Below, piece by piece: positions 6,028-51,579 of a DNA stretch of 64,000 nt (positions are counted from its first letter, which is position 1; every line of letters starts with the position of its first letter). The DNA is from Watersipora subatra. Lineage: Eukaryota > Bryozoa > Gymnolaemata > Cheilostomatida > Watersiporidae. Made by a program: the position numbers and the translations under genes. The stretch is taken from assembly GCF_963576615.1 (NCBI RefSeq), contig NC_088709.1:22461243-22525242 (forward strand), written 5' to 3'. The notes beneath the pieces are model-generated. The model was not told the DNA's origin, made no database searches, and worked only from the letters and a program-made list of their open reading frames with translations.

Positions 6028-6583
6028 CAGGAGTGTCCAAAATTTTTGCCAAGGGGGCCATATTTGTCGCGTTAAAAGTTTGAGGGCCAACCTTGGCGAA
6101 CATTTTTTACATCTAACAGAAATTAATTTAAATAAATTTTACCGAGCCAATATGTGTTTCATATTCCCTTTTTTAGTTCTATTTCAGCTATTGTAAGCAT
6201 GTGTTTTGGTTCGTTTGAAGCATGCATATCAAAATTGCATTGACAATATAATTGAAATTTAATAATCACCTAACTTCACTCTTTTTACACTAACTTTTTT
6301 GTAACAGTTGAACAAAGTAATATTACTCTTGGTTACAAATTACATTTGAAACGTGAAACAATATCTTACAATGGCAGTTTAATATTTATAGCCTTTTTAA
6401 ACACAATTACAGAAAAATGAACAAGCAATAGGCATATCAACAAATTAAGGGCTCATTTAAAATATGACAGTGCTATAAATATTGATTACAATCTTAAATG
6501 TTTAACACGCAGGTGACACTGCTTCTGCCCAATTTATTAACCCTTTGAACTATGGTCGTTTTTGTCAGCGGTGTCAGTAACTC

Positions 6584-7192
6584 TGTTATAGTTTCTGTTA
6601 CTGCTTTTAATTACTGAGACAATGCTATAACAACACTATATCAAACTCAGCGTAGCTATTTCAATCAATCAAGATTATTGATAAATGCAATCAATGTAAT
6701 AATTCCAAATACCTGTTGTAGCGTTCTTGAGTTGATCTCGGTCCCAGTGCGTCCACCAGGTTGGAAATCCGGACTCCAAAAGAATACCTTTTTGTCCTCC
6801 AGATCTCCCACCTCAGGTTGGTTAGTGACGCTCTGCCTGCGTGTACCAATCCTATTGGATCTTTCTTGAAACCTGGAAGTTCTAGCCTGAGACGAAACAG
6901 TAGATAAGATGATCAATAACACTGATGAAGTCGTTTGTAGAATATTGAGATTCTAGGCTGCCCTCCGCTTTCTAACTTTAGCTAGATTACACAGTTAAGA
7001 TTGACGTTGTTGCTGACATAAATCACTGTTCGTGTCTGACTGCAATTGATACCTTTAAGGCACCATTGAGTACCAATATATCACTTATTCTGACGGTTCC
7101 TCTTCCTACGAATAGTGTGAGTCAGTATCAGCAACTACCCATTGTTCAATACATATATAGAATCCGTCTTACATTCAATTCCAGCTATAACA
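6584..7192 (-). repeat. 3' LTR of the large retroelement
   Basis: 609 bp starting TGTTATAG and ending CTATAACA, matching 18202-18810 base for base by eye. Being in direct orientation it also lies immediately upstream of the plus-strand gene at 7368 and could contribute to its transcription; that is inference. Confidence 0.95.
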
Positions 7193-7367
7193 GTTCACCC
7201 GGAGTTAAGATTGTCAGTCCCTGACATTTAACTTAAACCAAGCCGGATATCATGTATTAGTACAACCGAATGTGTTCGAGGAAATCGTCGTAGGCCACCG
7301 TAGGGGAGGAGTTTTGCGATATCATTTGCTAATACCTGTCCGTATAATACCGTAATATTATTTCAAC
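7193..7367. other. Spacer between 3' LTR and antisense gene; polypurine tract expected but not evident
   Basis: For a minus-strand element the polypurine tract should abut position 7193 on the minus strand, but the sequence there (CTTAACTCCGGGTGAAC) is mixed. A purine run (GTAGGGGAGGAG, about 7299-7310) is on the plus strand and 100 bases away. TATA-like GTATAATA (about 7342) lies 25 bases before the antisense ATG. Confidence 0.4.
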
Positions 7368-8608
7368 ATGTCTAACGTATTCTTCTTCGTTGTACTTCTT
7401 GCTAGTGTAGTCGCGGTTCATGAGTATGTAAGTACTTAATTTTCCAAATCCATATACCGATGATATACATATATAAATAGTCTGCACTAGAAACCCATAA
7501 ACCAAAAGTAAAATGAAATGGAAAAAGAAATATAACAGATAAATGAGTCATACGGGTTACTCTATAAAAGTATAAAACGTCTTATTCGAGTTTTAGCTCG
7601 TAAGACTTCTTATCCATTAAAATACATTATAAAGTTATGAATATGTTAAGAACTCGTGGTTGGAGCCCCATTAAGTAATTCTAATTCTATGGTTTACAAT
7701 GAATATAGTCGAGATATAACAATTAGGAAACATTGCGTTAGTACAACACGTGCTAATCTCAGAAATAGGCATATATATATGTACCAGTGTACATCAGCCT
7801 ATATATATATATTTTTTTTTCTCGTTAGTATGGTTTGGAACTTGTATTATTATTTTTTTTTTTTTTTATATATATGCATGTAATCTGGTGATAAAATGGA
7901 GTTTAATAGTTAATAAGCTCAGCTAGAACGTGAGGTTAAATCATAATAAAAAACAAAAAGTTCTCAACTGCACCATAGAATCAGAATATTATGGGCTCGG
8001 ACTAGAAAATAAGATTGGAGAAAGAATTTCCACGTTTTGAACTTCTCCAATCTAATTAGTCTGCCGTTTTTCTATCGTGAAATTTCATTAAAATTCATAT
8101 ATACTACTAAAAATTTACTAACACGATTCCAAACAGGGTTGCCCCCACAACTGCAAATGTTTCCACGAGGTGTGGGACTGTCGAACGTCGCCACCCACCA
8201 CCTCAACTTCTCCACCTACCTCTATTTCGAATACTCACCATACCACTGCGGCATCCGACTATCACTCCACTACAACCGACCTACCTGTCTCCATTGGTGA
8301 GCCAAACCTGACCACCACTTCCATTTCTCCCATTAATGTTACGGGTGCTGTGGAAACACTGCAATACTTTACCAAAGAAAGAGTAAATATTGGTATGTCA
8401 TAAATATTATGAAAAAAGTATCTTCTTTCAGTCTCGTACTATTCTCAAACACTTTTTATTTGTAGATTGGAATATACTAGGCCCCGTCATTGCGGTGGCT
8501 GGGATTTTGTTGGCTGTCGTATGTTGGTGCTGTTTTAGAAAATACTCCAATAGACGGCAATCATCAATAACTCTGAATCTGCACAGACAAAGCCCTGAAG
8601 AGGCTTGA
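7368..8608 (+). CDS. Antisense spliced gene inside the retroelement: small type I membrane glycoprotein (form with last exon a)
   Basis: Three exons: 7368-7427, 8137-8392, 8466-8608 (152 residues). Exon 1 is a signal peptide (MSNVFFFVVLLASVVAVHEY) ending at a consensus GTAAGT donor. Intron 1 (709 nt) ends with a perfect TACTAAC branch site and CAG; intron 2 is 73 nt (GTATGT...TTTGTAG). Exon 2 opens with GCPHNCKCFHEVWDC, the CPxxCxCx6C pattern of an LRRNT cysteine cap, then a Thr/Ser/Pro-rich mucin-like stalk with two N-glycosylation sequons (NLT, NVT). Exon 3a starts in phase and encodes a transmembrane segment (VIAVAGILLAVVCWCC) and a 20-residue basic tail. AATAAA follows at 8661. It runs opposite to gag-pol, within the element. 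Function unknown; adhesion, receptor or superinfection roles are only guesses. Confidence 0.7.
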
Positions 8609-8660
8609 TTTGAATTTCTGGCTTATTAAGTGCCTTTTGTGTTTGATATATATATATTTG

Positions 8661-8666
8661 AATAAA
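8661..8666 (+). promoter_or_regulatory. Polyadenylation signal after exon a
   Basis: AATAAA 53 bases after the exon-a stop codon. Its use would truncate the transcript before exon b, a simple way of choosing between the two ends. Confidence 0.5.
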
Positions 8667-8738
8667 TAATCTATGGTTTGGGTACCCTTCTGTGATACTT
8701 GATTTCCTCAAGTGTTGATAGCAATAATTTTATTTTAG

Positions 8739-8839
8739 ACCCGATCATTCTGGACATCCTCCTTATATGTGGGATGCTATTAAGTATTCCCGTGATATTC
8801 CTACTGATAACCTGCTACCACCGCGCAAGAGAGCAGTAG
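8739..8839 (+). CDS. Alternative last exon b of the antisense glycoprotein gene
   Basis: A TTTTATTTTAG acceptor (ending 8738) opens a 101-base exon in the same phase as exon 3a. Joined to exon 2 it also creates an initial Asp codon and then ILDILLICGMLLSIPVIFLL, a second transmembrane segment, with a short basic tail (CYHRAREQ) and stop at 8837-8839. Agreement in phase, first residue, membrane segment and length argues for mutually exclusive terminal exons rather than chance. AATAAA occurs downstream at 9057-9062. RNA evidence is lacking. Confidence 0.55.
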
Positions 8840-9056
8840 TATTGCAAAGCTTCAAATGCTATGCTGTGCCAAAATGCTTAATTGCCTGAATATATCTGTT
8901 TTTTAAACAAAATAGTTGCATGTTGCTTAACTATGATAATACTACTAGTGAACTCAAAGTATAATGCAAGATATATCCTATGAGCACATCGTAAACTAAT
9001 TATGATCATGCCCCTGTAAAAAATGAATTTACTCCGTAAATTGCATAATAAGATTA

Positions 9057-9062
9057 AATAAA
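9057..9062 (+). promoter_or_regulatory. Polyadenylation signal after exon b
   Basis: AATAAA in an A-rich stretch 218 bases after the exon-b stop codon and 123 bases before the end of the convergent pol frame. Confidence 0.4.
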
Positions 9063-9184
9063 ACAACTACTTAAACCCAATCTTGACTTTATTATGTACG
9101 TATATGTTTACATATATATAGGTATATCTTGACAGCTAAATATGATACATTGATCCTGATTCTTCTGATTAGCGAGGTGAGAGT

Positions 9185-12100
9185 CTATGAGCTCGTATAC
9201 AGAAAATCTGCATCCCGCTTCCGCTTAACTCTCCGCCGTAGAGCGTATCTACCATCTGCATCTTTCCGCGTTCGTTGTTCTGGCTCGGGTGGTGGTTGTT
9301 TTCTGTTTATCTGACTGTTGTCATCCACAGGTACTTCAGAATCATTGCCTTGGGAAGATACTGAGTCTCCGGAAACGGTTAAATGTTCCGCACTGTTTCT
9401 CTTGTTGCCGTCTGAGACTACTGAAGTGTTACCTGCTGATTTGTCATTTTCAGGTCTTCTAGTGCCATCTGACGGGTAGCTAACCTCTGGTTTCCCACCA
9501 CTACGAGAAGAATTACCTTCCCTATCACTGGTATCCGACTCAGCGCGGGCGTCATCATTGGTATCTGATTCGTCATCAGGTGAGTACCCTAAATCTATAT
9601 CTAGCTCATGGCTACTGCCCCTCACTGCAGGCCCATGATACTGTTTTAGTGTATTTAGGTTCACTCTGAATGGTTTCTGGTCCGGTTCGTCAAATAATTG
9701 AATGTCCGCATAGTTTTCTGTCATCTTCTTGACGATGTAGATCCCCTGCCATCTCTTTATGAGTTTAGATGTTCGATTTCGGTAACCTCGGCGGTTATAG
9801 TAGAGGACCGCATCTCCCACTCGCAATGTCGATGGGGTTGCCTTTTTGTCGTAATACTTCTTCTGATTAATTTTTCCCTTTTCCATGGCTTGTCTAGCAT
9901 GTTCCCAAACCGTGGCCATACGCTCATGCAGTTCTGCTGCATATGTACCTGGGCTTACTCGTTCAGGTACCTTTGGTTGTGTCATGTCATACGGCATCCT
10001 CATCTCCCTGCAGAACAACAGCATGCTTGGTGATGCGTTGATGACTGTATGACGAGCAGAGTTGTGAGCCATTTGCACGAAGGGCAGATACGTGTCCCAA
10101 TCTTTGTGATTCTCAGCCACCAAGTGCGACAGCATCTGTCCAATAGTGCGGTTCGTAACTTCTGTGAGGCCATTGGTTTGAGGGCGGTAGGGAGTAGTTT
10201 TACGATGATCCACCCGTAGCAGAGAATTAATCTCAGTGACCACCTCGCTGAGGAAGTTTTTTGCTCTGTCACTGAGTAAAACTCTACTGCAACCGAACCT
10301 GCAGAAAATTCTTTCGATGTATGACCTGGCCACTGTCATGGCTGCCTGGTCTCTACATGCTTCCAACTCTGTGTACTTGGTAAAGTGATCTGTCCACACC
10401 AGAATGTGCTTCATGCCAGAGTCACTCTCCACGAAGGGTCCCTGAAAGTCCACTGACAACACATCGAATGGGCTGTCTGCCATTTGATATTTCATGGGTA
10501 CTCTTATAGGGGTTTTAGGGTCCTTCTTCCTTTGGCATGACTCACACTGGCTAATGTGTCTTCTTACTTCTTTGTTCATATTGGGGAACCAGTATTTGCT
10601 CCTTAGCTTGAGCAAAGTTTTACTCACTCCTGGGTGAATTGACATAAGGGACTCGTGGGCTGCGAAGAGCAAGTCTTTTCTCTGGTTGGCTGGTATGGCC
10701 AGCAGACGTTGACCATCTCTTGCCTTGTATAGCACCCCATTCACCAGCTCAAATCCAGAGCTTTTTTCCATAATCACTGTACGCTCTCTTTTAGAAGCGT
10801 CTGGTGGAAATTTTTTCTTGCTCAGGTAGAGCATAATAGGAGAAAGGTAGTAGTCTCTGGACTGTGCTAATGACATGCCCTTGTCATTCTCATCTAAATC
10901 TTCATCGATCACATTCACCTCATCAGCTCGGGACAGTGCGTCAGCGACTAGATTCTCTTTTCCCGCTTTGTGCTCTATATCGAAAGAGTAATCAGCCAGT
11001 TGTACCGCCCATCTTGCCAACCTGGGTGTGAGATCACTCTTCTTTACAATATAGGTGCATGCTACATTGTCTGTTTGAACCTTGAAATGGGTGTTCATAA
11101 GAAACGCCCTATAATGCTTCACCGCACATAAGATAGCAAACAGCTCTTGCTCGCAAGCATCCCACTTGCGCTCGGGAGCTTTGAGTGCTCGGGAGTAAAA
11201 CGACACAGGATGAGATTTGCCATCTTCTCCTACTTGTGAGAGTACTGCACCTACGGCCGTGGCACTCGCATCCGTCGTGAGAACGAAAGGCCTCGAGAAG
11301 TCTGGAAAAGATAATATTGGTGCTGAGGTGATTCTTTCTTTGAGCACTTCCATCGCGTGCTGGCACTCCTCGGTCCATACAAATGGTACATCTTTTGTTA
11401 GATGTTTAAGAGGGGCCGCAATAGAAGAGAATCCTTTTATGTATGTTCTGTAGAAGGAGAATAGGCCTAGTAACCTTTTAACTCCCGTCTTATCCGTCGG
11501 TGCTTTGAATTTCGATATCTTTTCAGTGTTATGTGGGGCTACCGCTATTCCCTTAGCAGATATAACATGCCCCAAGTACGTGAGCTCTCTCTGACAAAAA
11601 GTACTCTTTGACAACCGGTATTTGAGTCCATCGAACCGGAGTCTAGAAAATACTGTTCTGAGCAACTCCAAATGTTTGTCAAATGTTCTAGAGGTCATGA
11701 GCCAATCATCCAAGTAGACACAGCTACTGCCCTCAGTAATGAGATCTGCCATTATAGCCAGTGCCAACCTTTGGAAGGTACTAGGGGACCCAGATGCCCC
11801 CTGAGGCATCACATTCCAACGGTAGGTACCGAATGGTGTTATAAAGGAAGATTTTTCTTTCGAATCCTCATGAAGGGACACCTGATGGAATCCCGAACAC
11901 AGGTCGATGCTACTGAAATATCTTTTACCATGCATGATCTCCATAGCATTGTCTATGTTCGTAAGGGCCATTGAATGCTTAACTGTAACTGCGTTCAATT
12001 TTCTGTAATCCACACAAAATCTCCACGTACCATCCTTCTTTTTCACCAAAACTATCGGTGAACTCCACGCTCCTGTGCTCATCGATATTAGTCCTTGTTC

Positions 12101-13123
12101 CATCATCTTGTCAATCTGATCTTTTACTTCGGCACGGAGGTGTACAGGTATATTGTATGGTCTACTACGTACTGGCGTAGCTCCCGGAACAGTTTCTATT
12201 ACGTGTTCCACTATGGAAGTCCGACCAAGCTCTGTAATCCCTTCCGCTATCGTGTCCCGGAATTCGTTGATCAGGCCTCTCAGTTGTCGTATTTGGTTCT
12301 GGTTTAAATCCGTGTTCTCCATTTTCAACGAATCTCCTGGTCTACTATCAGATTGTACCACCGGTTTATCCCTAAGTAGATGTAGGTCCTCTTCAAGACT
12401 TTCTACACTTCCTACTATCGCGTTGACTGGCATGATCTGAAATGAGGAGCTTGTGTTCAGTATGGGGAAACGGATCATCCCTGTATTTACTCGATCTACT
12501 GATCTTCCAATCAACAGACTCCTTGAAGTCGCTAACTGATTGCCTTCAAAAAGGCACAGTCGACCTTCCTTGAAGTCGTGCTCTACGCGAATGTCTATCA
12601 AAGTCTGAGAGAAAGGAGGTAGTCGCATATGGTCTACCATCCTTACAGCATGTTTATTTCCCTTGTGTATGCAAATTTTGGCATCTCGTTGGATTACTGC
12701 TCTATCTCCCATCGGTACATCCGTGTTTCCAATTTTCAGCAAACATTTGTCAAAGTTATATGCAACCTCACCTAACTTGGCCAAGAAATCTGTGCCTAAA
12801 ATCACTTCATGGGAAATCTGATCCGCTATATGGAGGCAATGAGTATAAACCTCTCCTCCTAATGTGATTTTAGCTGCTGTCCTGCCTATAATTTTCAGAG
12901 TGTCATTGGTCACTCCTGTAGCAGATATCTTGTGTTGGTGAATAGGTAATTTCAGTCGGGCGGCGATATCAGCTCTAATCAAGGTGATAGTGGCTCCTGC
13001 ATCAGCTAAAGCCAAACAAGGTTTTCCCGAAATTAGAACTCGTACCACTGCATGTCGGCATTTTTTCCCTTTTGATGTGATTCCATTCACTCTATCCTGG
13101 CTAGTTGGTGGGTTGCTTGATTG
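9185..13123 (-). CDS. pol: Pol: aspartic protease, reverse transcriptase, RNase H, integrase
   Basis: Open for more than 1300 codons and in the same frame as the gag-glycoprotein frame, separated from it by one UGA (13124-13126). There is no good ATG at its start, so expression by readthrough is likely. Counting from 13090: protease motif ALADAGATITLI (Asp30; Ala replaces the usual Thr/Ser), RT with SSIDLCSGFHQ and YLDD near residue 458, RNase H TTDAS near 608, integrase zinc domain HX3-4H...CESCQ near 810-850, and DDE residues in SVDFQG, LSDRAKN and GLTEVTN (about 879, 940, 977; spacing near D-61-D-36-E). A hydrophilic tail of 150 residues ends in KRKRDADFLYTSS. PR-RT-RH-IN order is that of Ty3/gypsy. 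No stops or frame shifts, so it appears intact. Confidence 0.93.
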   Translation of the reverse strand, partial: QSSNPPTSQDRVNGITSKGKKCRHAVVRVLISGKPCLALADAGATITLIRADIAARLKLPIHQHKISATGVTNDTLKIIGRTAAKITLGGEVYTHCLHIADQISHEVILGTDFLAKLGEVAYNFDKCLLKIGNTDVPMGDRAVIQRDAKICIHKGNKHAVRMVDHMRLPPFSQTLIDIRVEHDFKEGRLCLFEGNQLATSRSLLIGRSVDRVNTGMIRFPILNTSSSFQIMPVNAIVGSVESLEEDLHLLRDKPVVQSDSRPGDSLKMENTDLNQNQIRQLRGLINEFRDTIAEGITELGRTSIVEHVIETVPGATPVRSRPYNIPVHLRAEVKDQIDKMMEQGLISMSTGAWSSPIVLVKKKDGTWRFCVDYRKLNAVTVKHSMALTNIDNAMEIMHGKRYFSSIDLCSGFHQVSLHEDSKEKSSFITPFGTYRWNVMPQGASGSPSTFQRLALAIMADLITEGSSCVYLDDWLMTSRTFDKHLELLRTVFSRLRFDGLKYRLSKSTFCQRELTYLGHVISAKGIAVAPHNTEKISKFKAPTDKTGVKRLLGLFSFYRTYIKGFSSIAAPLKHLTKDVPFVWTEECQHAMEVLKERITSAPILSFPDFSRPFVLTTDASATAVGAVLSQVGEDGKSHPVSFYSRALKAPERKWDACEQELFAILCAVKHYRAFLMNTHFKVQTDNVACTYIVKKSDLTPRLARWAVQLADYSFDIEHKAGKENLVADALSRADEVNVIDEDLDENDKGMSLAQSRDYYLSPIMLYLSKKKFPPDASKRERTVIMEKSSGFELVNGVLYKARDGQRLLAIPANQRKDLLFAAHESLMSIHPGVSKTLLKLRSKYWFPNMNKEVRRHISQCESCQRKKDPKTPIRVPMKYQMADSPFDVLSVDFQGPFVESDSGMKHILVWTDHFTKYTELEACRDQAAMTVARSYIERIFCRFGCSRVLLSDRAKNFLSEVVTEINSLLRVDHRKTTPYRPQTNGLTEVTNRTIGQMLSHLVAENHKDWDTYLPFVQMAHNSARHTVINASPSMLLFCREMRMPYDMTQPKVPERVSPGTYAAELHERMATVWEHARQAMEKGKINQKKYYDKKATPSTLRVGDAVLYYNRRGYRNRTSKLIKRWQGIYIVKKMTENYADIQLFDEPDQKPFRVNLNTLKQYHGPAVRGSSHELDIDLGYSPDDESDTNDDARAESDTSDREGNSSRSGGKPEVSYPSDGTRRPENDKSAGNTSVVSDGNKRNSAEHLTVSGDSVSSQGNDSEVPVDDNSQINRKQPPPEPEQRTRKDADGRYALRRRVKRKRDADFLYTSS

Positions 13124-13126
13124 TCA
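13118..13126 (-). promoter_or_regulatory. UGA stop with readthrough-type context between gag-glycoprotein and pol
   Basis: The codons are TGA CAA TCA. The six bases after the stop fit CARYYA, the context known for leaky stops in tobamoviruses, and the next in-frame stop is over 1300 codons away. This would yield a small amount of Pol fusion protein. The retroviral precedent for same-frame readthrough is gammaretroviral gag-pol (there UAG). Confidence 0.65.
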
Positions 13127-16100
13127 ATGTTGGGCTGCATATTGCTCTTGCGGGAAGTAAGTGGGGAATGGCAAGTTGGTGTCATTGACATTAGATACTA
13201 TACCTATTCCCTGGGGCGTACAATGGAGGCGCATAAAGGGCCCCTGCGAAGGCGCTTCAGATGGTGCTGAGGGCTCCATATGCATTCTCCTGCAATCGCA
13301 CTGAGTTGTGGCGTCTCCTCTGGTTGCGAGGATCTCATCATTTCCGTCTTTAAACATAGGGGTGTTTTCCGCAATGGCTTCGATATCTTCATCTGTGACT
13401 CCACCTTCAACATTTGCTACTAGGGCGCTCCGGTAGCGTTGAATTCGATCTGCGAGGCATTTCGTGTATAACTTATATGCCACTGCAAATGAGGCAAGTA
13501 ATGTCACCCCCAAGTTGCACAGAAATGACCACATCTCAAATCCATTAGCAACATGTCCTCCCGTTAGAAACCGGAAATAAGCGTTCCCAAGCACGCCCTC
13601 ATTGGACTCCCTTATATTGTCTTCCAACGTCCGGTGTCTGGTAGCCGATACACCCATGGCATTCAGTACTTGCTTCTGACGACTTAGCGTGGCCAGTAGA
13701 TTGTTGAGACTGCTATGGTCGCTAAATTGCTGCCAGTTTAGTCTGTGAGCTCGACTGTAAATGGTCTCGTGAATCTTTGGTGGGTTAGCTCCCAAATGGA
13801 TATTCGGAATAGATATATTGTGTAGTAATTCGGCTTTAGTGAGTGTTCCATCTCGATGGTAAGTGTAGACGGTTCCATTTAGTTTAATAAGCGACTCGTC
13901 CCTTAAACGGCAGTCGACCTGAATGGAATCCGTATGAACCACATTAGTTGTTGAGTCTATGAACCCAACATAGGTATCACCACCGAAGGTAATGTTGATG
14001 GGCAAATACTCTGTGCAGTTGTTCTCCTCCATGCCCAGGAACTTGTAAGAGTCCGGATTAAGTTCAGTGCAGGGGAACACTTGCACAAAGTCGGGTCCTT
14101 GTCTGGCTATAATGTCGGAATTATTCAACAGGAAGCGGGCACTAGTAGTGGGATGTTGAGTTAGGAGCAGGGCTATTATTTTCAAGGTCTCTGCAATATT
14201 GTTGCAGGTATACGCATAATTGCTCCAAAATTGGTTTTTTTCTGTTTGCGCCATCTGGTAGGCTAATGGTTGTATCATTGCGTTCAGAATTGCGGTATCC
14301 TCTCCCACAGCTGTATTTTCCTTCTTTGTGTAATTGGCCAAGTCGACCATGGTGACATTATTGAGTAGGCGAACTACCAACCCTTGGTCCGTAACTGTCA
14401 CGGGCCGATCGGAACAATCCTTCATGGTGTTTAAGCCATGTTTGTGGAATGTTAGCGCTAGGTTAAGGTCGGTGCTTACAAAATGACCATCAAAATATGT
14501 ACCATTCACCTTGTAATCTTCCGTAAATTTGCACGTAGTATTAGCATTCTCATTCCAAATTAACACCGTGCCATCCGCTAGCAAACAACTCTTATCTTCA
14601 TACTTGCAGCTCGACACATCTCCAGCTGTCGATTCAAAAATGTCTTGGCCATGTCTCTTGTAAACACTGGCTTCAATAACCGAACACTGTTCAGCCGTGA
14701 AGTCATGTTTTTTGCAGCAGTACCTGTACTCTGCATTGATGGTGTTTTTTGTAATGTAGACACCATTACCACCTTCCAGAGGTCCCGCTGAGCATCGTCT
14801 CGTGTTTACCATCGAGACACATTCTTCCCTTGTAACGGTTGTGCTCTTACTTGACGGAGTTTTCTGTTTGATATCCGATAACCAACTTATTTCGGTTGTT
14901 ATTGTCTGCGTAAATTTACTGCACTGGTAGGCGATGCTGGACCATTGCACTAGGTTTTTTTGATATACCATAAGTTGCATGGCCTGTGGTTTCATGGTAG
15001 AGTTGTCAACAGACTGTTTATCACACACGTAGTTGGTATTTATCCCGTAGATGTGCGGCTTATCCGCAGGTGAAGATCCGCAAATCAGTGGTCCTGTGGG
15101 GTGTACTGCGGAAGAAGGGGTAGTAAGGACGGCTAGAACAGTGCACACCAGCATTGGTGCATATGCCATCGTTTTTGTGCCCTTTACCTTGGTACCTTTT
15201 CGATGGGTTCCTGGTTTTTCTCCCTCATCTTTCGGTTGAGTGAGCAAAGCATGTGCAAACTGTTCGTCATCCAATTTTTCAAAGTTCCTTTCGGCATTCC
15301 CCACCTGATTCACTTTATTGCCGGATCTATCACCGTAGTTGCCGTTGCGTCTGTTGCTGTAACAATTTTCTGTCCAATGGTTTTTCTTTCTGCAAATTTT
15401 ACAAAACTTCATTGGCGGGATATTTCTTGTCGAGCTGTTGGGTGTCATGTCGTGGTTAAATTGCTTCTTCCCTTGTCCATAATTATCTCCTTGAGATGTC
15501 TGAACGCGACTTGGACGAAAGGGTTGTCTGTCTTTATTAATAGTTGGGTTTTGCGCTGTCTGGCCTTTAGAAGTTTGAGATTTCACAAGTTCGGTCAAGG
15601 CCTTGACCTGCTTGGCTAACCCCTCTACCCTTGACCCTTCTGGTCTTTCCTTCGGTTTTTGAGATCGAATTTCATTCACGTTGTGGGAGTTAGCTGCCAC
15701 CAGTCTCTGTCCTTTTCCAACAGCGTCGTTATATTCTGTAGTCTTGGCTATTTCTAATGCTCGAGCCAACGTGCAATCCCCTGCAGCTATTATCTTATCT
15801 TGGTATTTTTCCTTCAGACCATTTATGAAGGCATCCCTGATGAATTGCTCCTTGTAGTATTCGGGGATTCCCGAATACGCGGCCTTGCTCGAGGTCACCA
15901 GTTCATCATAAAAATGCCCTACAGACTTCTTCCCTTGGGTCAAAGTGAACATGGCTCTTCCTTTCATTGTCTTATGTCGTAGAAAGGTTTTGTCCAATTC
16001 GCCTTTGAGGGCTAGGTAGCTTCTAACACAAGGGTTACCACCTTTTACCAGACTTATGTAGGCCTGATACGCCGATCCCTTAAGGGACTTCGGCAGGCAT

Positions 16101-16528
16101 TGCGCAAGTTGCTCGTCGCTTTGACCGAAGGGGAGCATGTCTACTTCCCACCTCTCCGTAAATCCTTGCCAGCTTTCCTGTGGCTCATCAGCAAAGTTGA
16201 TCATGGTTTCGAAGTTCGGAAGAACTACGGGAGCGGCAGCAGACCTCAGGGCCGTGCCTGATATAGGCGAGGCCGGATATACGGGCTCTTGGAGGCGGGC
16301 AACATTACCCGCTTGGGCCTGCATTTGATACCCCGGCGGGGGGGGCAAATCCTCCCAGTGGGGGAATGACTCCTCCCGGCGGAATTTCATAGCCTGTCTG
16401 CAGCATTGGCTTTGGAACCTGTACCATCGGTTGCCCTGAAAATGGTTGTTGTGGAGACGGTATAACGGGTTGTGGTTGTAGATTGGTACGCTCGGCTGGT
16501 TGGCCACTAGCGAAGGGCTGTTGACCAA
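13124..16528 (-). CDS. Gag capsid/nucleocapsid fused in frame to an envelope-like glycoprotein
   Basis: 1134 codons, though about the first 65 belong to the overlap with the upstream gag frame. Residues about 95-300 are Gag capsid-like. A CCHC knuckle CKICRKKNHWTENC lies near 373-388. From the Met at residue 454 (15169) a typical signal peptide (MAYAPMLVCTVLAVLTTPSSA) starts a 681-residue cysteine-rich ectodomain with about ten N-X-S/T sequons. A membrane span (WSFLCNLGVTLLASFAVAYKLY) lies near 996-1020, followed by a tail of roughly 110 residues. I see no RXK/RR furin site and cannot place it in a known fusion-protein class. A glycoprotein between gag and pol is atypical. No obvious splice acceptor precedes 15169, so it may be released from a polyprotein by signal peptidase. 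A capture of a host ectodomain is the alternative. Confidence 0.8.
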   Translation of the reverse strand: MVNSPSLVANQPSVPIYNHNPLYRLHNNHFQGNRWYRFQSQCCRQAMKFRREESFPHWEDLPPPPGYQMQAQAGNVARLQEPVYPASPISGTALRSAAAPVVLPNFETMINFADEPQESWQGFTERWEVDMLPFGQSDEQLAQCLPKSLKGSAYQAYISLVKGGNPCVRSYLALKGELDKTFLRHKTMKGRAMFTLTQGKKSVGHFYDELVTSSKAAYSGIPEYYKEQFIRDAFINGLKEKYQDKIIAAGDCTLARALEIAKTTEYNDAVGKGQRLVAANSHNVNEIRSQKPKERPEGSRVEGLAKQVKALTELVKSQTSKGQTAQNPTINKDRQPFRPSRVQTSQGDNYGQGKKQFNHDMTPNSSTRNIPPMKFCKICRKKNHWTENCYSNRRNGNYGDRSGNKVNQVGNAERNFEKLDDEQFAHALLTQPKDEGEKPGTHRKGTKVKGTKTMAYAPMLVCTVLAVLTTPSSAVHPTGPLICGSSPADKPHIYGINTNYVCDKQSVDNSTMKPQAMQLMVYQKNLVQWSSIAYQCSKFTQTITTEISWLSDIKQKTPSSKSTTVTREECVSMVNTRRCSAGPLEGGNGVYITKNTINAEYRYCCKKHDFTAEQCSVIEASVYKRHGQDIFESTAGDVSSCKYEDKSCLLADGTVLIWNENANTTCKFTEDYKVNGTYFDGHFVSTDLNLALTFHKHGLNTMKDCSDRPVTVTDQGLVVRLLNNVTMVDLANYTKKENTAVGEDTAILNAMIQPLAYQMAQTEKNQFWSNYAYTCNNIAETLKIIALLLTQHPTTSARFLLNNSDIIARQGPDFVQVFPCTELNPDSYKFLGMEENNCTEYLPINITFGGDTYVGFIDSTTNVVHTDSIQVDCRLRDESLIKLNGTVYTYHRDGTLTKAELLHNISIPNIHLGANPPKIHETIYSRAHRLNWQQFSDHSSLNNLLATLSRQKQVLNAMGVSATRHRTLEDNIRESNEGVLGNAYFRFLTGGHVANGFEMWSFLCNLGVTLLASFAVAYKLYTKCLADRIQRYRSALVANVEGGVTDEDIEAIAENTPMFKDGNDEILATRGDATTQCDCRRMHMEPSAPSEAPSQGPFMRLHCTPQGIGIVSNVNDTNLPFPTYFPQEQYAAQH

Positions 16529-17219
16529 ATGCTTGTGGTGGGCCAGTCACAGTTCGGGGTGTGCTAACTGCTGACGGCTTCCCAATTATGATTGGTTGTT
16601 GCAAAGGGGCCTGATTTGGTTGAGATGTGTTTGCATGCAATAACATCATCTGCAAATCAGTCGGTATTGATCTCCACACGGCTTCCGCTTGTCGTTCTCT
16701 ACTCATAGCGGGTAATGTCCGCTGTGACTGAACCATTGGGGCAGCAAAGCGCATCATGCCCGGTTGAGTCGCTGTTTGGGGAGGCTGCAGTGACCTGAAT
16801 GGTGGCTGATATGCGGTGGTAGGTTGAGGATTAGGTATTGGTGGGTAACCTATTGGTTGCTGCTCCCGTGTATCAATACCTAATCGCCTATCCGTGTTGG
16901 CCTGGTAATAACTCAGCGGTAGGTGGTTACCTAGCGAGAGTGGTTGCTTGAGGCTGGGTGGGTCCTCTAGACTCACTGACGTATCAACGGCTGAACTCGC
17001 GAAAGATGTTCCGCCACTTGTGTTATTATCATCAGTTAAGGGTGCTGTATTGATATCAGGGTATAGCCCTGCTTCAGCAGCTTGGGGCTGCCCATTGGAA
17101 GCAGTGCCTACCGATTGAGTCAAAGGTGTCATCTCCTCAGTGGAGACTGGTTGGTAGGGTCTATTGCTTCTCGTCCTGCCTCCAACCATGCCACGCAGCC
17201 AGGATCCTGCTTGTTCCAT
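16305..17219 (-). CDS. gag: Gag N-terminal region, Pro/Gln-rich
   Basis: Starts at ATG 17219 (MEQAGSWLRGMVGG) after the long leader and runs about 290 codons before leaving the capsid frame at a C8 run (plus-strand G8, 16338-16345). Composition is rich in Pro, Gln and Ser with repeated PP and QP motifs, like the disordered matrix/linker parts of many Gag proteins. Gly is not at position 2, so no N-myristoylation is expected. A single-base length change in the C8 run would explain the loss of frame with the capsid frame; whether this is mutation, sequencing error or recoding is open. Confidence 0.75.
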   Translation of the reverse strand: MEQAGSWLRGMVGGRTRSNRPYQPVSTEEMTPLTQSVGTASNGQPQAAEAGLYPDINTAPLTDDNNTSGGTSFASSAVDTSVSLEDPPSLKQPLSLGNHLPLSYYQANTDRRLGIDTREQQPIGYPPIPNPQPTTAYQPPFRSLQPPQTATQPGMMRFAAPMVQSQRTLPAMSRERQAEAVWRSIPTDLQMMLLHANTSQPNQAPLQQPIIIGKPSAVSTPRTVTGPPQAFGQQPFASGQPAERTNLQPQPVIPSPQQPFSGQPMVQVPKPMLQTGYEIPPGGVIPPLGGFAPPAGVSNAGPSG

Positions 17220-18184
17220 GCTTTAACGCAAATATTTCCCTTTGTATTTGTCACTCTGTGTTGTAACAACAACAGTTTCTCCTGCGCTATGTATAAATTA
17301 CTGTGCTTCAGAATTAATGCAGCTTACAGAGAATACTTAGATTGGCTATTGTTGCTATGGTTACTGTTTTATTGCTCTAGTTATGATTACACAAGTTTGA
17401 CAATAACTCGGTTCAATCAACAATGAATTAAATGAACACTCAGTAAGGTATAATTGATTAAAGTATAAGCGTCTGTAATTCTTTTTAAAATTCAATTGGG
17501 TTAATTATCTGCTAATTAATTTCCAAAATTAATTAAACAAAAGGTTTTCCCTGTCGCTTATATTGCAGAATTGTCACTATTGTAGTGTATTTTCAATTGC
17601 TTGAAAGCTATGTAAGCTTACAATCAGTTTTCCTAAGGTAGCTACTCTACTAGTTATATGCAGGTGCTTGAAAACTGTAAAAATGAATCAAGATATTTTA
17701 GTTTCCCTATCTTTGGCTGCCTTACACTATTCTTACCCTGTTCTTCGGTAAATTTGTAAGCACCTGAAAACTAAGACGGTTAGTATATCAGTTTCCCTAT
17801 TGTTAGCTGCACTACACTAATTCTTTACCCTATGCTTTGGTAAATCTGTAGGCGCTTGAAAACTGATTTATCTGCTTGCTCTGACAGAGGGGTGATTTCA
17901 ATTTGTTTCTTGTGAAATTCAAGTTCCCTAAGCAGTTACGCTAATTTGTTATGGATAGTGCACTTATCCGTTTAACAGTAGCAGATTGGAATGTGTCTCA
18001 AATATGTGTGCGACGGCTAAAACTATTAATCACTTATGCAGTTACTTAAGCTCACCCGTCGTAAAAACACACTGTCCACAGTGGATTAACAACTGCAGAT
18101 ATACACAATACAAAATTGCAAGCAAAAACTAAGAGGGGGCGATCCACCAGGACGTCCAATTGCTTGGCAGCGGGGCCGGAAAAA
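17220..18184 (-). other. Long retroelement leader with imperfect tandem repeats
   Basis: No gene. Between about 17660 and 17870, blocks of about 95 bases recur: TTTCCCTAT...TTAGCTGC...TACACTA...TTACCCT...GGTAAAT.TGTA, each ending in CTTGAAAACT or CCTGAAAACT. On the minus strand the repeats contain GGGTAAG/GGGTAAA, possible splice donors. A packaging, insulator or promoter role is possible but unproven. Confidence 0.6.
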
Positions 18185-18198
18185 CCTAGCCTCCACCA
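18185..18198 (-). other. Primer-binding site of the large retroelement
   Basis: On the minus strand TGGTGGAGGCTAGG begins 3 bases after the 5' LTR. The first eight bases match the 3' end expected of tRNA-Ala; the tRNA assignment is tentative. Confidence 0.55.
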
Positions 18199-18201
18199 CA
18201 A

Positions 18202-18810
18202 TGTTATAGTTTCTGTTACTGCTTTTAATTACTGAGACAATGCTATAACAACACTATATCAAACTCAGCGTAGCTATTTCAATCAATCAAGATTATTGAT
18301 AAATGCAATCAATGTAATAATTCCAAATACCTGTTGTAGCGTTCTTGAGTTGATCTCGGTCCCAGTGCGTCCACCAGGTTGGAAATCCGGACTCCAAAAG
18401 AATACCTTTTTGTCCTCCAGATCTCCCACCTCAGGTTGGTTAGTGACGCTCTGCCTGCGTGTACCAATCCTATTGGATCTTTCTTGAAACCTGGAAGTTC
18501 TAGCCTGAGACGAAACAGTAGATAAGATGATCAATAACACTGATGAAGTCGTTTGTAGAATATTGAGATTCTAGGCTGCCCTCCGCTTTCTAACTTTAGC
18601 TAGATTACACAGTTAAGATTGACGTTGTTGCTGACATAAATCACTGTTCGTGTCTGACTGCAATTGATACCTTTAAGGCACCATTGAGTACCAATATATC
18701 ACTTATTCTGACGGTTCCTCTTCCTACGAATAGTGTGAGTCAGTATCAGCAACTACCCATTGTTCAATACATATATAGAATCCGTCTTACATTCAATTCC
18801 AGCTATAACA
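18202..18810 (-). repeat. 5' LTR of the large retroelement
   Basis: 609-bp copy of 6584-7192. On the minus strand it has TATA-like TCTATATATG about 40 bases into the LTR and AT-rich sequence beyond. A primer-binding site follows 3 bases after its minus-strand 3' edge. Confidence 0.95.
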
Positions 18811-19736
18811 ACTCGAGGAAATCTGTCCAACGATCATAACTTTTATTAAATATAACTTAACATGCTCATAATACAATGATGTTTGGTAAAAATTAGTAAA
18901 AAGGTCGAGCAACCCACAGAAAATGTCACCAAACAGAAAAAACAGTGCGCCACCATTATTAGGGCCAAAACTATAACGAATCGTACGTTTTCAAAAAACT
19001 TGTAAAAACATTTACAATAGCACCATATCCATTGAGCACATGTTCATCATCATTTCATGACTAAAAATATAGTGAAAAATTGCAGTTAGTATCATAAAAT
19101 TCTTTATTTGCATCACAATCATTTATGACCTACAACAAACGAGTCGTATCAATTTTTTCGCAAAACCTTTTAAATAGAATTTGTTATTAAATCGAAGGAA
19201 GTGAAGATATTTGAAAACTGTTACAAATGGATAGGACATTTCAGTTCAAACTTCCTGTGCAAGAATTAATCTGATTGGTTTATGCTGTTACTTAGAAACT
19301 GCTTTTGCAAACAAAGCCGTGCGAATACCAGATTTCCAGCCGTTTGGGATTTTGACACACCTGCCTTCGCAATGCTGAGAAAAACAGCCGGTAGGTTTCA
19401 TAGTTAATTCTGCAGGCGGGCCAGACTTTATTGATTTTAAGACAGAGGCTGTGGGCCGAATAAAAATTGACCCTGGGCGGCATTTGGCCCAGATGCCGGA
19501 CTTTGGACGTGTCTGGCCTAATACCCTAAAACAACCAACACTGATAGGAACTGATCGGAAACAATCGATACTTTCTGTCAGAATCAACTAAAATTTGACG
19601 GTGGCGAGTTCGTTCTATTGGTGAGGTGGGCTAACACGATGTTGAAGTATTGTTTTGTACCTTGTGGTCTTCATTAGAACTGTGGTCTCTCGGTCTTGGT
19701 TAACTGCTGTATTGCCGAAAGCACAAAGAAAACATA

Positions 19737-24686: not shown

Positions 24687-27600
24687 ATGATCTACAGTGT
24701 ATCAATGATAGAAAACCACAGAGCCATTAATGCAACAGGTATGGAAGCGCAAGAAAGGAACTCGGAAGAGCTGCTCTACCACCTCCTCAAAACATACACA
24801 GAAGGGGAGTACAGATTTTCTCAACTAACAGTCACAGACCTGAGCAGGTTCTTGGAAGGTGTTTCAGAAGCAAAGCGTTGTTTTATTGTTCAAAGCAAGT
24901 TTGAAGATGGAGTGAGTTTCCTTCATCAAACTGTTGGATATGAAAAATTGCTGTTCATGTGCATTTTGAACAGCATTCAGTCGGAGGATAGACATAAATT
25001 AATTATGGTGCAGGACAATGAAGGAATGACACCGCTGCACTATGCTAGTCGGTCATACCCTTTAGATACAGTGAGATATGTACTGGAATGCATAACACCA
25101 GAAAGTAGACATGCATCACTTATGGTGCAGGATACTAAAGGAATGACACCACTACACTATGTTAGTCAGTCAAAAGATGCATATGCAGTGAAATATGTAC
25201 TGGAATCCATAGCACTGGAGAATAGACTTGCATCACTTATGATACAGAATAATGAAGGAATGACGTCATTACACTATGCTAGTCAGTCATACTCCTCAGA
25301 TAAAGCGAAATATGTATTGGAATCCATAGCGTCAGATAATAGACATGCATTACTTATGATGCAGGATAATAAAGGGATGACGTCACTACACTATGCTAGT
25401 ATGTCAGACGGTGCGGATGCGGTGAAATATTTATTGGAATCTATAGCACTAAAGAATAGGCAAGCATCACTTATGGTACAGGATACAGAAGGAATGACCT
25501 CACTACACTATGTTGGTCAGTCAAGAAATACAGATAAAGTAAAATATGTACTGGAATCCATTGCACCAGAGAAGGAACATGCATCACTTATGGTTCGGGA
25601 TAATAGAGGGATGACACCATTACACTATGCTAGTCAGTCAGGAGGCGCAGCTACAGTGAAATTTGTATTGGAATTCATAGCAACAGCGAATGAACATGCA
25701 TTACTTATGGTGCGCGATGATAAAGAAATGACATCACTGCACTATGCTTGTCAGTCAGGAGGCCCAGATACAGTGAAATATGTACTGGAATCCATAGGAC
25801 CAGAGAATAGGCTGTCATCACTTATGGTCCAAGATAATAAAGGAATGACATCACTACACTATGCTAGTCAGTCAAAAAATCCAGATACATTAAAGTATAC
25901 ACTGAAATCCATTGCACCAGAGAATAGACATGCATCACTTATGGTACAGGATAATGAAGGAATGACACCACTACACTATGCTAGTCAGTCAGGTGTAAAT
26001 ACAATGAAATGTGTACTGGAATCTATAGCGCCAGATAATAGACAATCATCACTTATGGTGCAGGATAATGAAGGAATGACATCACTACATTATGCTAGTC
26101 AGTCAGGAGATTCAAATACAGTGAGATATGTACTGGAATCCATTGCACCAGAGAAAAGACATGCATTACTTATGTGGCAGGATAAAGAAGGAATGACATC
26201 ACTACACTATGCTAGTCAGTCAGGAGATGTAGATACAGTCAAATATCTACTGGAATGTATCGCACCAGAGAATAGACACGCGTCACTTATGGTGTGGGAT
26301 AAAGAAAGAATGATACCACTACAGTATGCTAGTCAGTCAGGAGATATAGATAAAGTGAAATATGTACTGGAATCCATAGTGTCAAAGAAGGGACACACAT
26401 CACTTATGGTTCAGGATAATAAAGGAATGACATCACTACATTATGTTTCCCAATCAAGAGGTGCAGATACAGTGAAATACGTACTGGATTCCATAACACC
26501 AGAGTATAGACATGCATTACTTATGGTACAGGATAATGAAGGAATGACATCACTACACCATGCTTGTCAGTCAGAAGAAGAAGATAAAGTGAAGTATGTA
26601 CTAGAATCCATAGCACCAGAGTATAGACACACATCACTTATGGCACAGGATAATAAAGGAATGACGGCGCTACACTATGCTAGTCGGTCATACTTTTCAG
26701 ATACATTAAAACATGTACTAGAATCCATTGCGCCAGAAAATAGACATGCTTTACTTATGGTGCGGGATAATGAAGGAATGACATCATTACACTATGTTAG
26801 TCTTTCAAGATGCGCAAATAAAGTTAAATATGTACTGGAATCCATTCCTCCAGAGAATAGATATGCATTACTTGCAGTACAAGACAATGAAGGATTGACA
26901 TCACTACACTATGCTAGTCAATCAGGAGGTGCAGATGCAGTGAAATATGTACTGGAATCCGTAGCACCAGAGAATATACATGCAATGCTTATAGTGCAAG
27001 ATAAGGGAGGAATGACATCATTACACTATGCTAGTCAGTCAGGAGGTGCAGATGCAGTGAAATATATACTGGGATCCATAGCATCAAAGAATAGACATGC
27101 ATTACTTTATGCGCAGACCAATAGAGGAATGACATCCCTACACTATGCTAGTCAGTCAGGAGATACAGATACTGTTAAGTATGTGCTTGAATCTATAGCA
27201 CCAAAGAATAGACATGCATCACTCAAAGTACAGGATAATGAAGGTAAGACAGCCCTGCACTATGCTAGTCAGTCAAGAGATACAGCTTTAGTGAAATATG
27301 TACTGGAATCCATACCATCGGAGAATAGACATGCATCACTCATGGTACAGGATAATGAAGGAATGACATCATTACACTATGCTAGCCGATCTTGCTTTTC
27401 TGATACAGTGAAATTTGTACTGGAATCTATTGCACCGGAGTATAGACACACATCACTCATGGTGCAGAATAATAGTGGAATGACATCGCTACACTATGCT
27501 AGTCAGTCAGGAGATACAGATAAAGTGAAATATATAATTGAATCCGTATCATGGGCGACTAGACATGCATTGTTCATGGTACAGGATTATAAGGGAATGA

Positions 27601-29142: not shown

Positions 29143-29249
29143 GTAAATGAAATATTTTAAATCCTCTTGAGAATACATTTACTACAAGCCGCCTTCATGG
29201 TAATTTAATTGCCATTTTATGAGTTTCTTATAAACATTTTAGTTTTCAT

Positions 29250-44448: not shown

Positions 44449-45600
44449 TTGGCTTATATTAAACATAACCATAGAAGACTTAGAGCTGACAGTTACATTC
44501 ACCTAAGAGATGTTGTGCTAAACGATGATGCACAGAACATCGGCCAATTAGTCATTTTCCCTTTAATGGAAACCCTCGATACATGCATGAGTATGTCCAA
44601 GATGGTAGCACCTATGCCAGACAACATGTAAGGCCAGATCTATTTATAACATTAACGTGCAATCCAAATTGGGCGGGTATCAAAGAAGCTCTCCTAGATA
44701 GGCAAGCAGCTCATGACAGACATGACATTGTAGCTAGAGTGTTTGGGCTAAAAGTGAAACTACTGCTCAACTTGCTAACCAAGGGAAAAAAATTTGGCAA
44801 TGCTCAATTCTTCCTTTATTCAATTGAATGGCAAAAACAAGGTCTGCCTCATTGTCATCTTCTTCTATGGCTGGTAGAAAAAATACGCTGATTTCAGGTT
44901 GACTCAATAATATTTGCAGAAATTCCAGATAACGAGGAGGACCCAACTCTGCACAGCATCGTTACCAAGCAAATGATACATGGGCCATGTGGCAACTTCA
45001 ATCACCTTTCTCCCTGTATGAAAGACGGAAAATGCACCAAACAATACCCGCAAGCACTAATTCATGACACTCTGACTGCTGATGATGGATATCCACAGTA
45101 TAGAAGACGAATACCAGGGATGGGAGGACATTTTGCAATAATTCAATGCGGTGGTACAGAAATAGAAATTGAAAACAGATGGGTTGTGCTATACTGCCCT
45201 CTTCTATCAAAGATTTTCAACACCCATCTCAATGTGGAATATTGTCATTCGAATAAATCCATAAAATACATTTGCAAATACATTCACAAAGGTAGTGATC
45301 AAGCAGCTTTTGTTATAGAAAATAACAGGGATGAAGTTACCACTTTTCAAACTGGTAGATATATTTCCAGCAATGAGGCTGTTTGGAGGATTTTAGGTTT
45401 GCCAGTTCATCAGAGACATCCTGCAGTAACACACCTTAGTGTACTTCTGGAAAATGGACAGTGAGTATACTTCAATGAGGAGAACATTGAACAACGCGCA
45501 CAGGAACCACCAAGGACTACTTTAACAGAATTTTGTAAAGCATGACAAAACGATGAGTTTGCTCAAACTCTACTATATCATCAAATGCCTAATTACTACA
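44449..45600 (+). pseudogene. Helitron Rep (HUH nuclease) remnant
   Basis: Successive frames read AYIKHNHRRLRADSYIHLRD, then MHEYVQDGSTYARQHVRPDL and FITLTCNPNW, then GLPHCHLLLWL (HUH motif, about 44840-44870), then KYICKYIHKGSD (YxxxK/KY catalytic tyrosine region, about 45265-45300). Breaks: a frame shift near 44570, an in-frame TGA at 44889, and TGA codons near 45461 and 45543. The normal N-terminal half is missing. In an intact element this protein nicks and joins single-stranded DNA for rolling-circle transposition. Confidence 0.85.
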
Positions 45601-45601
45601 C

Positions 45602-51484: not shown

Positions 51485-51579
51485 GGTTGTGATTCCTTTA
51501 CTTGGAATTACACGTGAGATTTGGCCAACAAAAGGCTGGTGTGGATGTCGTTGTTTTCATTTATCAAACGTATGTATGA

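What the first reader, a model, noticed from the sequence alone, without database searches (positions are those of the whole stretch)
7368..8839. Spliced host-like gene carried on the opposite strand of a young LTR retroelement
Seen: signal-peptide exon with consensus donor, TACTAAC/CAG acceptor, a second exon with matching phase, and terminal exons with transmembrane segments, all between pol and the 3' LTR and antisense to gag-pol. Known: introns in sense would be lost on retrotransposition, but antisense introns are not spliced from genomic RNA and can be carried indefinitely. Inference: the element stably propagates an intron-containing membrane-protein gene, comparable in position to antisense genes such as HTLV-1 HBZ but with its own exons. 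I know of no described Ty3/gypsy element like this.
Basis: partly seen in the sequence, partly recalled or inferred. Interest (0 to 1): 0.92.

Follow-up and report, generated by a model that had tools for sequence, protein, structure and literature searches.

The report
Conserved antisense intron-bearing gene in retrotransposon
A virus-like jumping element carries, on its opposite strand, a small intron-containing gene for a probable membrane protein; other copies and related families share its exons, frames and splice sites, so it looks like a real, long-lived gene of the element.

Summary
A 12.2-kb Ty3/gypsy element (6584-18810, minus strand; 609-bp LTRs identical) carries on the plus strand, between pol and 3' LTR, exons 7368-7427, 8137-8392 and 8466-8608, with an alternative last exon 8739-8839. 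The same genome holds 14 loci of this region. Splice sites are kept in nearly all loci that have them. Exon-2 indels are multiples of three in 17 of 20 locus comparisons, against 15 of 88 in intron 1. dN/dS is 0.33, 0.49 and 0.52 for exons 1, 2 and 3a, but 1.2 and 1.1 in exon 2's wrong frames. Two sister families (pol 62-63% identical) carry the same three-exon antisense gene with the same intron phases; two more distant families showed none. So it is an old accessory gene of this lineage; 'host-like' is not supported. Predicted product: a small single-pass, Ser/Thr-rich membrane protein. Transcription, splicing and function are not shown; only 5 of 14 loci keep exons 1-3a open. Precedents exist (plant Grande/Retand antisense ORFs, spliced HTLV-1 HBZ, HIV-1 ASP): a new variant.

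The parts
6584..7192 (-). 3' LTR of the element (609 bp)
   Evidence: 100% identical to 18202-18810; starts TGTTATAG, ends CTATAACA
18202..18810 (-). 5' LTR of the element
   Evidence: flanking 4-bp repeat ACTC at 6580-6583 and 18811-18814
7368..7427 (+). antisense gene exon 1: start codon and hydrophobic leader (signal-peptide-like), ends in phase 0 before GTAAGT
   Evidence: dN/dS 0.33 in 9 loci
7428..8136 (+). intron 1 (709 nt); CTAAC at 8118-8122, CAG acceptor
   Evidence: donor GT 11 of 12 loci, acceptor AG 14 of 14; indels multiple of 3 in 15 of 88
8137..8392 (+). exon 2: Cys-rich start, Ser/Thr-rich middle; ends in phase 1 before GTATGT
   Evidence: dN/dS 0.49 in frame, 1.22 and 1.14 in the other frames, 11 loci; donor GT 14 of 14
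8297..8302 (+). alternative in-phase donor GTGAGC inside exon 2, aligned with the exon-2 donor of sister families A and B
   Evidence: GT in 12 of 14 loci (not L007, L014)
8393..8465 (+). intron 2 (73 nt)
   Evidence: acceptor TAG 12 of 12 loci
8466..8608 (+). exon 3a: hydrophobic (TM-like) segment, short basic tail, TGA
   Evidence: dN/dS 0.52 in 10 loci; homologous exon in sister families
8661..8666 (+). AATAAA after exon 3a
   Evidence: present in 11 of the 12 loci that have the stretch
8739..8839 (+). exon 3b: alternative last exon, hydrophobic, TAG; coding role unproven
   Evidence: acceptor AG 12 of 12; no internal stop in the 11 loci of whole-codon length, L010 left out; L011 has lost the stop codon; dN/dS 1.93 on few changes, changes 12/12/5 by codon position
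9057..9062 (+). AATAAA after exon 3b
   Evidence: present in 11 of the 11 loci that have the stretch
9185..13090 (-). pol (protease, RT, RNase H, integrase)
   Evidence: Pfam
13124..16528 (-). open frame: gag domain and CCHC motif, then an envelope-like glycoprotein in the same frame
   Evidence: (gag domain below Pfam cut-off, 19.6 against 24.1 bits); CCHC read by eye
16305..17219 (-). upstream gag-region frame (Pro/Gln-rich)
   Evidence: no Pfam match

Best explanation
A genuine accessory gene of a Ty3/gypsy lineage, written antisense to gag-pol between pol and the 3' LTR. Inferred working: a promoter in or just inside the 3' LTR makes a plus-strand transcript; the host spliceosome removes two introns; the mRNA ends at an AATAAA before pol; the product enters the secretory pathway by its exon-1 leader and becomes a small single-pass membrane protein with a short Cys-bearing, Ser/Thr-rich outer part and a basic tail. 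The introns survive because the genomic RNA that is reverse-transcribed is the other strand, on which they are not splice sites. Most likely role (inference): a surface accessory protein acting beside the element's own envelope-like glycoprotein at the membrane where particles leave or arrive. Shown here: anatomy, conservation, coding constraint on exons 1, 2 and 3a, shared structure in two sister families. Inferred: promoter, splicing, topology, role.
For: 14 loci in one genome share the structure: acceptor 1 and donor 2 14 of 14, donor 1 11 of 12, acceptors 3a and 3b 12 of 12 each (these counts include the window copy and near-identical L002; without them). Counting changes on a tree, the exons together change most at the third codon position (114/93/142, p=0.0024; driven by exons 1 and 2), introns and flanks do not. 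dN/dS ex1 0.33, ex2 0.49, ex3a 0.52, different from 1 with p 0.0013, 0.00012, 0.00066 (kappa held at 2 in the null, so approximate). Pairwise dN/dS to the window copy 0.30-0.43 for the 10 loci compared over three or more exons; the end of pol gives 0.25-0.63 for 8 of the 9 loci usable there and 0.96 for L003. Indels keep the frame in 17 of 20 exon-2 comparisons and 10 of 16 in exon 1. Sister families A (5 loci) and B (12 loci): GTAAGT donor in 17 of 17, leader open from its ATG in 15 of 17 (not L042, L052), exon-2 acceptor AG and donor GT in 17 of 17, exon-3 acceptor in 14 of 17, and 13 of those 14 begin D-W-S-V/A-V-G-P. Exons 2 and 3a match each of L032-L035 better than all 200 shuffles. AATAAA follows exon 3 in L032 and L034/L035 too (read).
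Against: No RNA or protein evidence. Only 5 of 14 loci (L001, L002, L005, L006, L007) keep exons 1, 2 and 3a all open. Exon 3a alone shows no clear third-position excess (36/27/37) and one wrong frame of it also departed from 1 (dN/dS 0.75, p 0.029); its two indels and exon 3b's one are not multiples of three. Within families A and B dN/dS is not clearly below 1 except A exon 3 (0.35): A ex1 0.67, ex2 1.5; B 0.96, 0.89, 0.74; divergence there is low. The truncated L009 and L012 give 0.66-0.67. Exon 3b shows no amino-acid constraint. The product has no known relative, so the role is a guess. TM segment and signal peptide are read from hydrophobicity; no dedicated predictor was run.
Confidence: 0.82

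Rival explanations
1. A recently captured host gene fragment, carried passively antisense in the element and drifting.
For: Introns, leader exon and last exons look like a host gene; antisense position lets introns persist.
Against: Present in the 14 loci found and in two sister families with pol only 62-63% identical; coding constraint; no host paralogue found by tblastn with exon 2 and no database relative.
Confidence: 0.06
2. A non-coding antisense RNA that regulates the element (small-RNA source or sense-RNA blocker); open frames incidental.
For: Antisense non-coding transcripts are known in retrotransposons (PMC7264820, passages seen); exon 3b is conserved in nucleotides without codon bias.
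Against: Frame-specific dN/dS, frame-keeping indels, phases and splice sites kept.
Confidence: 0.08
3. Small fusogen or attachment protein for direct cell-to-cell transfer, like Drosophila sORF2/FAST-like proteins.
For: Small single-pass membrane protein with basic residues after the hydrophobic stretch; such proteins are reported to move Ty3/gypsy capsids between cells (PMC11952523, passages seen).
Against: That family is forward-oriented, mostly N-myristoylated, 63-107 aa and its transcripts showed no splicing in the passages seen; here antisense, with a leader exon and a Ser/Thr-rich stalk, and the element already has an envelope-like protein.
Confidence: 0.15
4. Receptor-interference or immune-modulating surface decoy made by the integrated copy.
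For: Secreted/membrane design and fast-changing Ser/Thr-rich outer part; antisense-region divergence exceeds that of pol in L007 (synonymous 0.28 against 0.085), as if variants are exchanged.
Confidence: 0.2

Closest known systems
Antisense additional ORFs of plant Ty3/gypsy elements (Grande gene23, RIRE2, Retand)
   Same: [quoted passage not shown] conserved in many copies; Grande gene23 has its own promoter (PMC7264820, PMC11963269, passages seen).
   Different: Products described there are nuclear (Grande) or carry the TRP28 domain (Retand); the word 'intron' occurs 0 times in either paper's held main text. Here two introns, a leader exon and a hydrophobic last exon.
HTLV-1 HBZ and the antisense proteins of HTLV-2, -3 and -4
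   Same: Antisense gene, HBZ expressed from the 3' LTR, with spliced transcripts (PMC10186651, passages seen).
   Different: HBZ is a nuclear bZIP protein; no such domain here. HTLV is Retroviridae, this element is Ty3/gypsy.
HIV-1 antisense protein ASP
   Same: Antisense-coded membrane protein of a retrovirus; a cited title calls it a cell-surface and virion-envelope protein (PMC10186651, passages and reference list seen).
   Different: ASP is modelled with two TM segments and (recalled) overlaps env; here one hydrophobic segment per last exon, and the exons overlap no sense ORF of 60 aa or more.
sORF2/FAST-like proteins of insect Ty3/gypsy elements
   Same: Small single-pass membrane accessory proteins of Metaviridae (PMC11952523, passages seen).
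   Different: All candidates there in forward orientation, no splicing seen; no leader exon.
ORF3s of bdelloid rotifer LTR elements
   Same: Additional small ORFs with TM segments, called separate transcription units from spliced messages (PMC5408684, passages seen).
   Different: The passages do not describe antisense genes; the word 'intron' occurs 0 times there.
Anakin (mosquito BEL-Pao element with a chuvirus glycoprotein)
   Same: LTR element carrying a negative-strand-virus-type glycoprotein (PMC7642597, passages seen).
   Different: BEL-Pao, not Ty3/gypsy; concerns the sense glycoprotein, not the antisense gene.

Membership tests
Ty3/gypsy (Metaviridae) LTR retroelement | pol order protease-RT-RNase H-integrase | tested here: met
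   Pfam protease 16-104, RT 349-510, RNase H 597-701, integrase 799-970
Ty3/gypsy (Metaviridae) LTR retroelement | paired LTRs with TG..CA ends and a short target duplication | tested here: met
   609-bp identical LTRs; TG..CA ends and ACTC repeat
[quoted passage not shown]
Antisense aORF between pol and 3' LTR (as in Grande, Retand) | own antisense promoter | not testable with these tools
   no RNA data
Antisense aORF between pol and 3' LTR (as in Grande, Retand) | TRP28 domain (Retand only) | tested here: not met
   Pfam on exons 2, 3a, 3b apart: no such match
HBZ-like spliced antisense retroviral gene | intron(s) in the antisense gene | tested here: inconclusive
   conserved splice sites and phases; splicing itself not observed
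HBZ-like spliced antisense retroviral gene | bZIP protein | tested here: not met
   no Pfam match to bZIP on exons 2, 3a, 3b
sORF2/FAST-like membrane proteins | forward orientation and N-myristoylation motif | tested here: not met
   antisense; leader starts MSNVFFF, no MGxxxS/T
Host gene capture | a host paralogue outside the element | tested here: not met
   tblastn with exon 2 at E up to 1: 17 rows, 16 from the family and 1 decayed relative beside a pol fragment
LRR N-terminal cap (considered from the Cys pattern, recalled) | Pfam LRRNT match | tested here: not met
   no family for exon 2 at E up to 10; sister exons lack the full Cys pattern

The most novel reading that the evidence does not exclude
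An old class of Ty3/gypsy elements keeps, for at least as long as its families have diverged, a spliced antisense gene for a surface protein that works as a second membrane protein beside a captured negative-strand-virus-type envelope, with a switchable last exon (3a or 3b) in one family. That would make the antisense strand of a retroelement a refuge for intron-bearing, independently regulated genes.
Probability: 0.35. Interest if true: 0.9.

Novelty: new variant of a known kind. Interest (0 to 1): 0.75.

Why it matters
Reverse transcription is expected to erase introns. A gene that keeps two introns through the divergence of at least three element families, by lying on the antisense strand, shows how retroelements can hold and regulate intron-bearing genes. 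It also gives a concrete, testable case of an antisense-coded membrane protein in Ty3/gypsy elements, alongside the little-understood antisense proteins of HIV-1 and HTLV.

Tried and rejected
Host-gene origin: exon 2 against the protein database, Pfam, PDB (three GAL4 matches at E 0.1-0.9, taken as chance), phage records (44), own genome (55): no host relative. LRR-cap idea from the CxxxCxC pattern: no Pfam support, and the pattern is not held in families A and B. IMG/VR scan with pol: no relative. Host species: not identified; the pol search gave a 99% relative on an unnamed 7.2-kb contig. Exon 3b as a coding exon: not supported by codon statistics; a weak likeness to the last exon of L031 (p 0.05) and one high score in L039 but not its sister L038 (0 of 200 shuffles) are left as probable chance. 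Other copies of L031's family and a direct search with family B's stretch could not be looked for: those requests did not complete. Two slips were redone: one search translated exon 3b one base off, and skipped exons 3a and 3b by wrong end coordinates.

Rows dropped before counts. Codon models: loci whose exon length is not a multiple of three (exon 1: L008, L011, L013; exon 2: L003, L008, L013; exon 3a: L004, L013; exon 3b: L010) and loci lacking the exon (exon 1: L012, L014; exons 3a and 3b: L009, L012). Family models: L042 by length in B exons 1 and 2; L040, L042, L046 by hand and L043 by length in B exon 3. Family A: 5 of 6 places were used (the sixth is broken by an insertion); family B: 12 of 17. 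Sister pol families: eight elements fetched out of 29 sister rows, itself a capped list (36 of 10,937 candidates scored).

Full report
The element. The window holds a Ty3/gypsy element with both LTRs on the minus strand, 6584-18810. Its LTRs (609 bp) are identical at every base and are flanked by ACTC on both sides. pol is one open frame of 1301 codons with protease, RT, RNase H and integrase in the Ty3/gypsy order. Upstream lies a gag region, whose second frame (16528-13124) runs from a gag domain (below Pfam's cut-off) and a CCHC motif read by eye straight into an envelope-like glycoprotein.

The antisense gene. On the plus strand, between the 3' LTR and the end of pol, the sequence shows an ATG and hydrophobic leader (7368-7427), a GTAAGT donor, a 709-nt intron ending TACTAAC...CAG, exon 2 (8137-8392), a GTATGT donor, a 73-nt intron and exon 3a (8466-8608, TGA) with a hydrophobic stretch and a short basic tail; a second acceptor opens exon 3b (8739-8839, TAG), also hydrophobic. 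Phases agree: 0 into exon 2, 1 out of it, 1 into either last exon. No sense-strand frame of 60 codons or more overlaps the exons (the only such sense ORF between the LTR and pol is 8878-9066).

Copies in the same genome. A DNA search gave 15 matches at 75-100% identity, which are 14 loci (two matches belong to L013). Splice sites (window copy and near-identical L002 included): donor 1 GT in 11 of 12 loci that have it (L009 reads CT); acceptor 1 AG in 14 of 14; donor 2 GT in 14 of 14; acceptors 3a and 3b AG in 12 of 12 each. Without L001 and L002, GTATGT is identical in 12 of 12 and GTAAGT in 9 of 10, while only 41 of 655 six-mers of intron 1 (9 of 113 and 28 of 333 in two flanking stretches) are identical in every locus. 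Many copies are decayed: only 5 of 14 (L001, L002, L005, L006, L007) have exons 1, 2 and 3a all open; the others carry a frameshift, stop, lost ATG or truncation. L007 is notable: its exons 1, 2 and 3a are 82-86% identical to the window's, all open, with in-frame length changes.

Coding constraint. Changes counted on a tree fall 114/93/142 on codon positions 1/2/3 of the exons (p=0.0024), and about evenly in introns and flanks; by exon: 17/6/27, 49/48/73, 36/27/37 and, for 3b, 12/12/5. Codon models run on each exon apart give dN/dS 0.33 (exon 1, 9 loci), 0.49 (exon 2, 11 loci) and 0.52 (exon 3a, 10 loci), but 1.22 and 1.14 for exon 2 read in the other two frames, 0.75 for exon 3a one base off, and 1.93 for exon 3b. 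Against dN/dS=1 the fit differs with p 0.0013, 0.00012 and 0.00066 for exons 1, 2, 3a, and 0.0049 for 3b, whose estimate lies above 1; the wrong frames gave 0.24, 0.19 and 0.029. The null held kappa at 2, so these p values are approximate. Indels against the window copy, counted locus by locus and so not all independent, are multiples of three in 17 of 20 cases in exon 2 and 10 of 16 in exon 1, but 15 of 88 in intron 1, 0 of 4 in intron 2, 0 of 2 in exon 3a and 0 of 1 in exon 3b. Pairwise dN/dS to the window copy is 0.30-0.43 for the ten loci compared over three or more exons (L003-L008, L010, L011, L013, L014) and 0.66-0.67 for the truncated L009 and L012. For the end of pol, ten loci were compared: 8 give 0.25-0.63, L003 gives 0.96 with 11 stops, and L002 has one change only. 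So exons 1-3a are constrained about as pol is. Exon 3b is conserved in sequence, but not in a way that shows coding.

Sister families. tblastn with exon 2 finds only the family's loci plus L031 (E 0.08). The pol search, a capped list, shows other families at 57-63% identity, many open. I fetched the pol-3' LTR stretch of eight such elements, two each of four families. Families A (L032, L033) and B (L034, L035), pol 63% identical (62-63% over the families' rows), hold the same gene: a leader exon ending at a codon boundary before GTAAGT, an exon 2 with C-K-G-W-x-x-V-T-x-C and ending in phase 1, and a last exon beginning D-W-S-V-V-G-P after TTGTAG, followed by AATAAA. More loci, 5 of family A and 12 of B in all, keep GTAAGT in 17 of 17 and the exon-2 acceptor and donor in 17 of 17. 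The exon-3 acceptor is kept in 5 of 5 and 9 of 12 (L040, L042, L046 lack the exon). The leader is open from its ATG in 15 of 17, exon 2 in 15 of 17 (not L041, L042), and exon 3 in 11 of the 14 that have it (not L041, L043, L047). Exons 2 and 3a of the window score 48-61 and 62-70 against L032-L035, above all 200 shuffles in each of the eight tests (two near-identical loci per family, so about four independent ones). In L036-L039 (families C and D, pol 58-59%), 12 to 196 of 200 shuffles score as high for exons 2 and 3a. Exon 3b finds no match in A or B in that test. The donor of A and B aligns with a second in-phase donor of the window family, GTGAGC at 8297, so the window family may have lengthened exon 2. 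L031 is a decayed relative with a similar exon 2 and last exon, beside a pol fragment 43% identical. Within A and B, dN/dS is not clearly below 1 except for A exon 3 (0.35); those copies are very similar.

What it is. The gene is older than the split of the three families and was either gained in their common ancestor or lost in C and D. No relative outside was found, so neither a host nor a viral source can be named. The sequence suggests a small type-I, Ser/Thr-rich, single-pass membrane protein; this rests on hydrophobicity and composition. The intron-keeping logic is established knowledge: only the sense genomic RNA is reverse-transcribed. The antisense promoter in the 3' LTR is inferred by analogy with HTLV-1.

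A mosaic. For L007 the antisense exons are synonymously 0.28 diverged from the window copy, while the end of pol is at 0.085 and the LTR at 97% identity. Intron 1 is at 87%. So this stretch has another history than its flanks; exchange of variants by template switching would explain it.

Comparison with what is known. Antisense ORFs between pol and 3' LTR characterise plant Retand elements and occur in Grande and RIRE2 (PMC11963269, PMC7264820; passages seen); neither held text contains the word intron. HTLV-1 HBZ comes as spliced and unspliced antisense transcripts from the 3' LTR, and HIV-1 ASP is an antisense membrane protein (PMC10186651; passages seen). Small membrane proteins of insect Ty3/gypsy elements (sORF2) are all forward-oriented (PMC11952523; passages seen). 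Bdelloid elements have small TM ORF3s from spliced messages (PMC5408684; passages seen). In the listings of searches of the held library I saw no description of an intron-bearing antisense membrane-protein gene in a Ty3/gypsy element; most subscription papers are missing there.

Verdict. Conserved and under coding constraint (confidence 0.82 for an accessory gene of the element); expression and function unproven; a new variant of the known kind 'antisense accessory gene of an LTR element'.

Noticed in passing
13124-16528 (-): An envelope-like glycoprotein lies between gag and pol, in frame with gag. Nine relatives at 44-55% identity, two labelled with a gag domain and one (P0008) with PF24664; in my own scan P0002 weakly matches PF24664 Monjiviricetes_fusion (E 1.5e-5, 23.6 bits, below the cut-off of 27) and P0008 does not. 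Envelope before pol is unusual for LTR elements (recalled; I saw no such case in the listing of one search).
   Followed up: partly
7193-9184 in L007, L008, L010 against the window: The antisense region is more diverged than pol in the same copies (synonymous 0.25-0.28 against 0.085-0.117), suggesting mosaic elements or exchanged gene variants (LTR 94-97%).
   Followed up: partly
8739-8839 (+): Exon 3b is among the best-conserved stretches of the region (97-100% identical in 8 of 11 loci) but shows no codon-position bias, so its conservation may have another cause.
   Followed up: partly
24687-29150 (+): 1487-codon open frame with about 30 tandem 117-nt (39-residue) repeats, ankyrin-like by eye.
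   Followed up: no
44973-47609 (+): Frames that look like a Helitron/PIF1-type helicase by eye.
   Followed up: no
50412-57584: Fragments that look like BEL/Pao and non-LTR retrotransposons by eye, two similar non-LTR pieces in opposite orientation.
   Followed up: no
G000:C6:58635365-58639006: A relative of pol sits in an open frame of 2498 codons, perhaps gag-envelope-pol in one frame.
   Followed up: no
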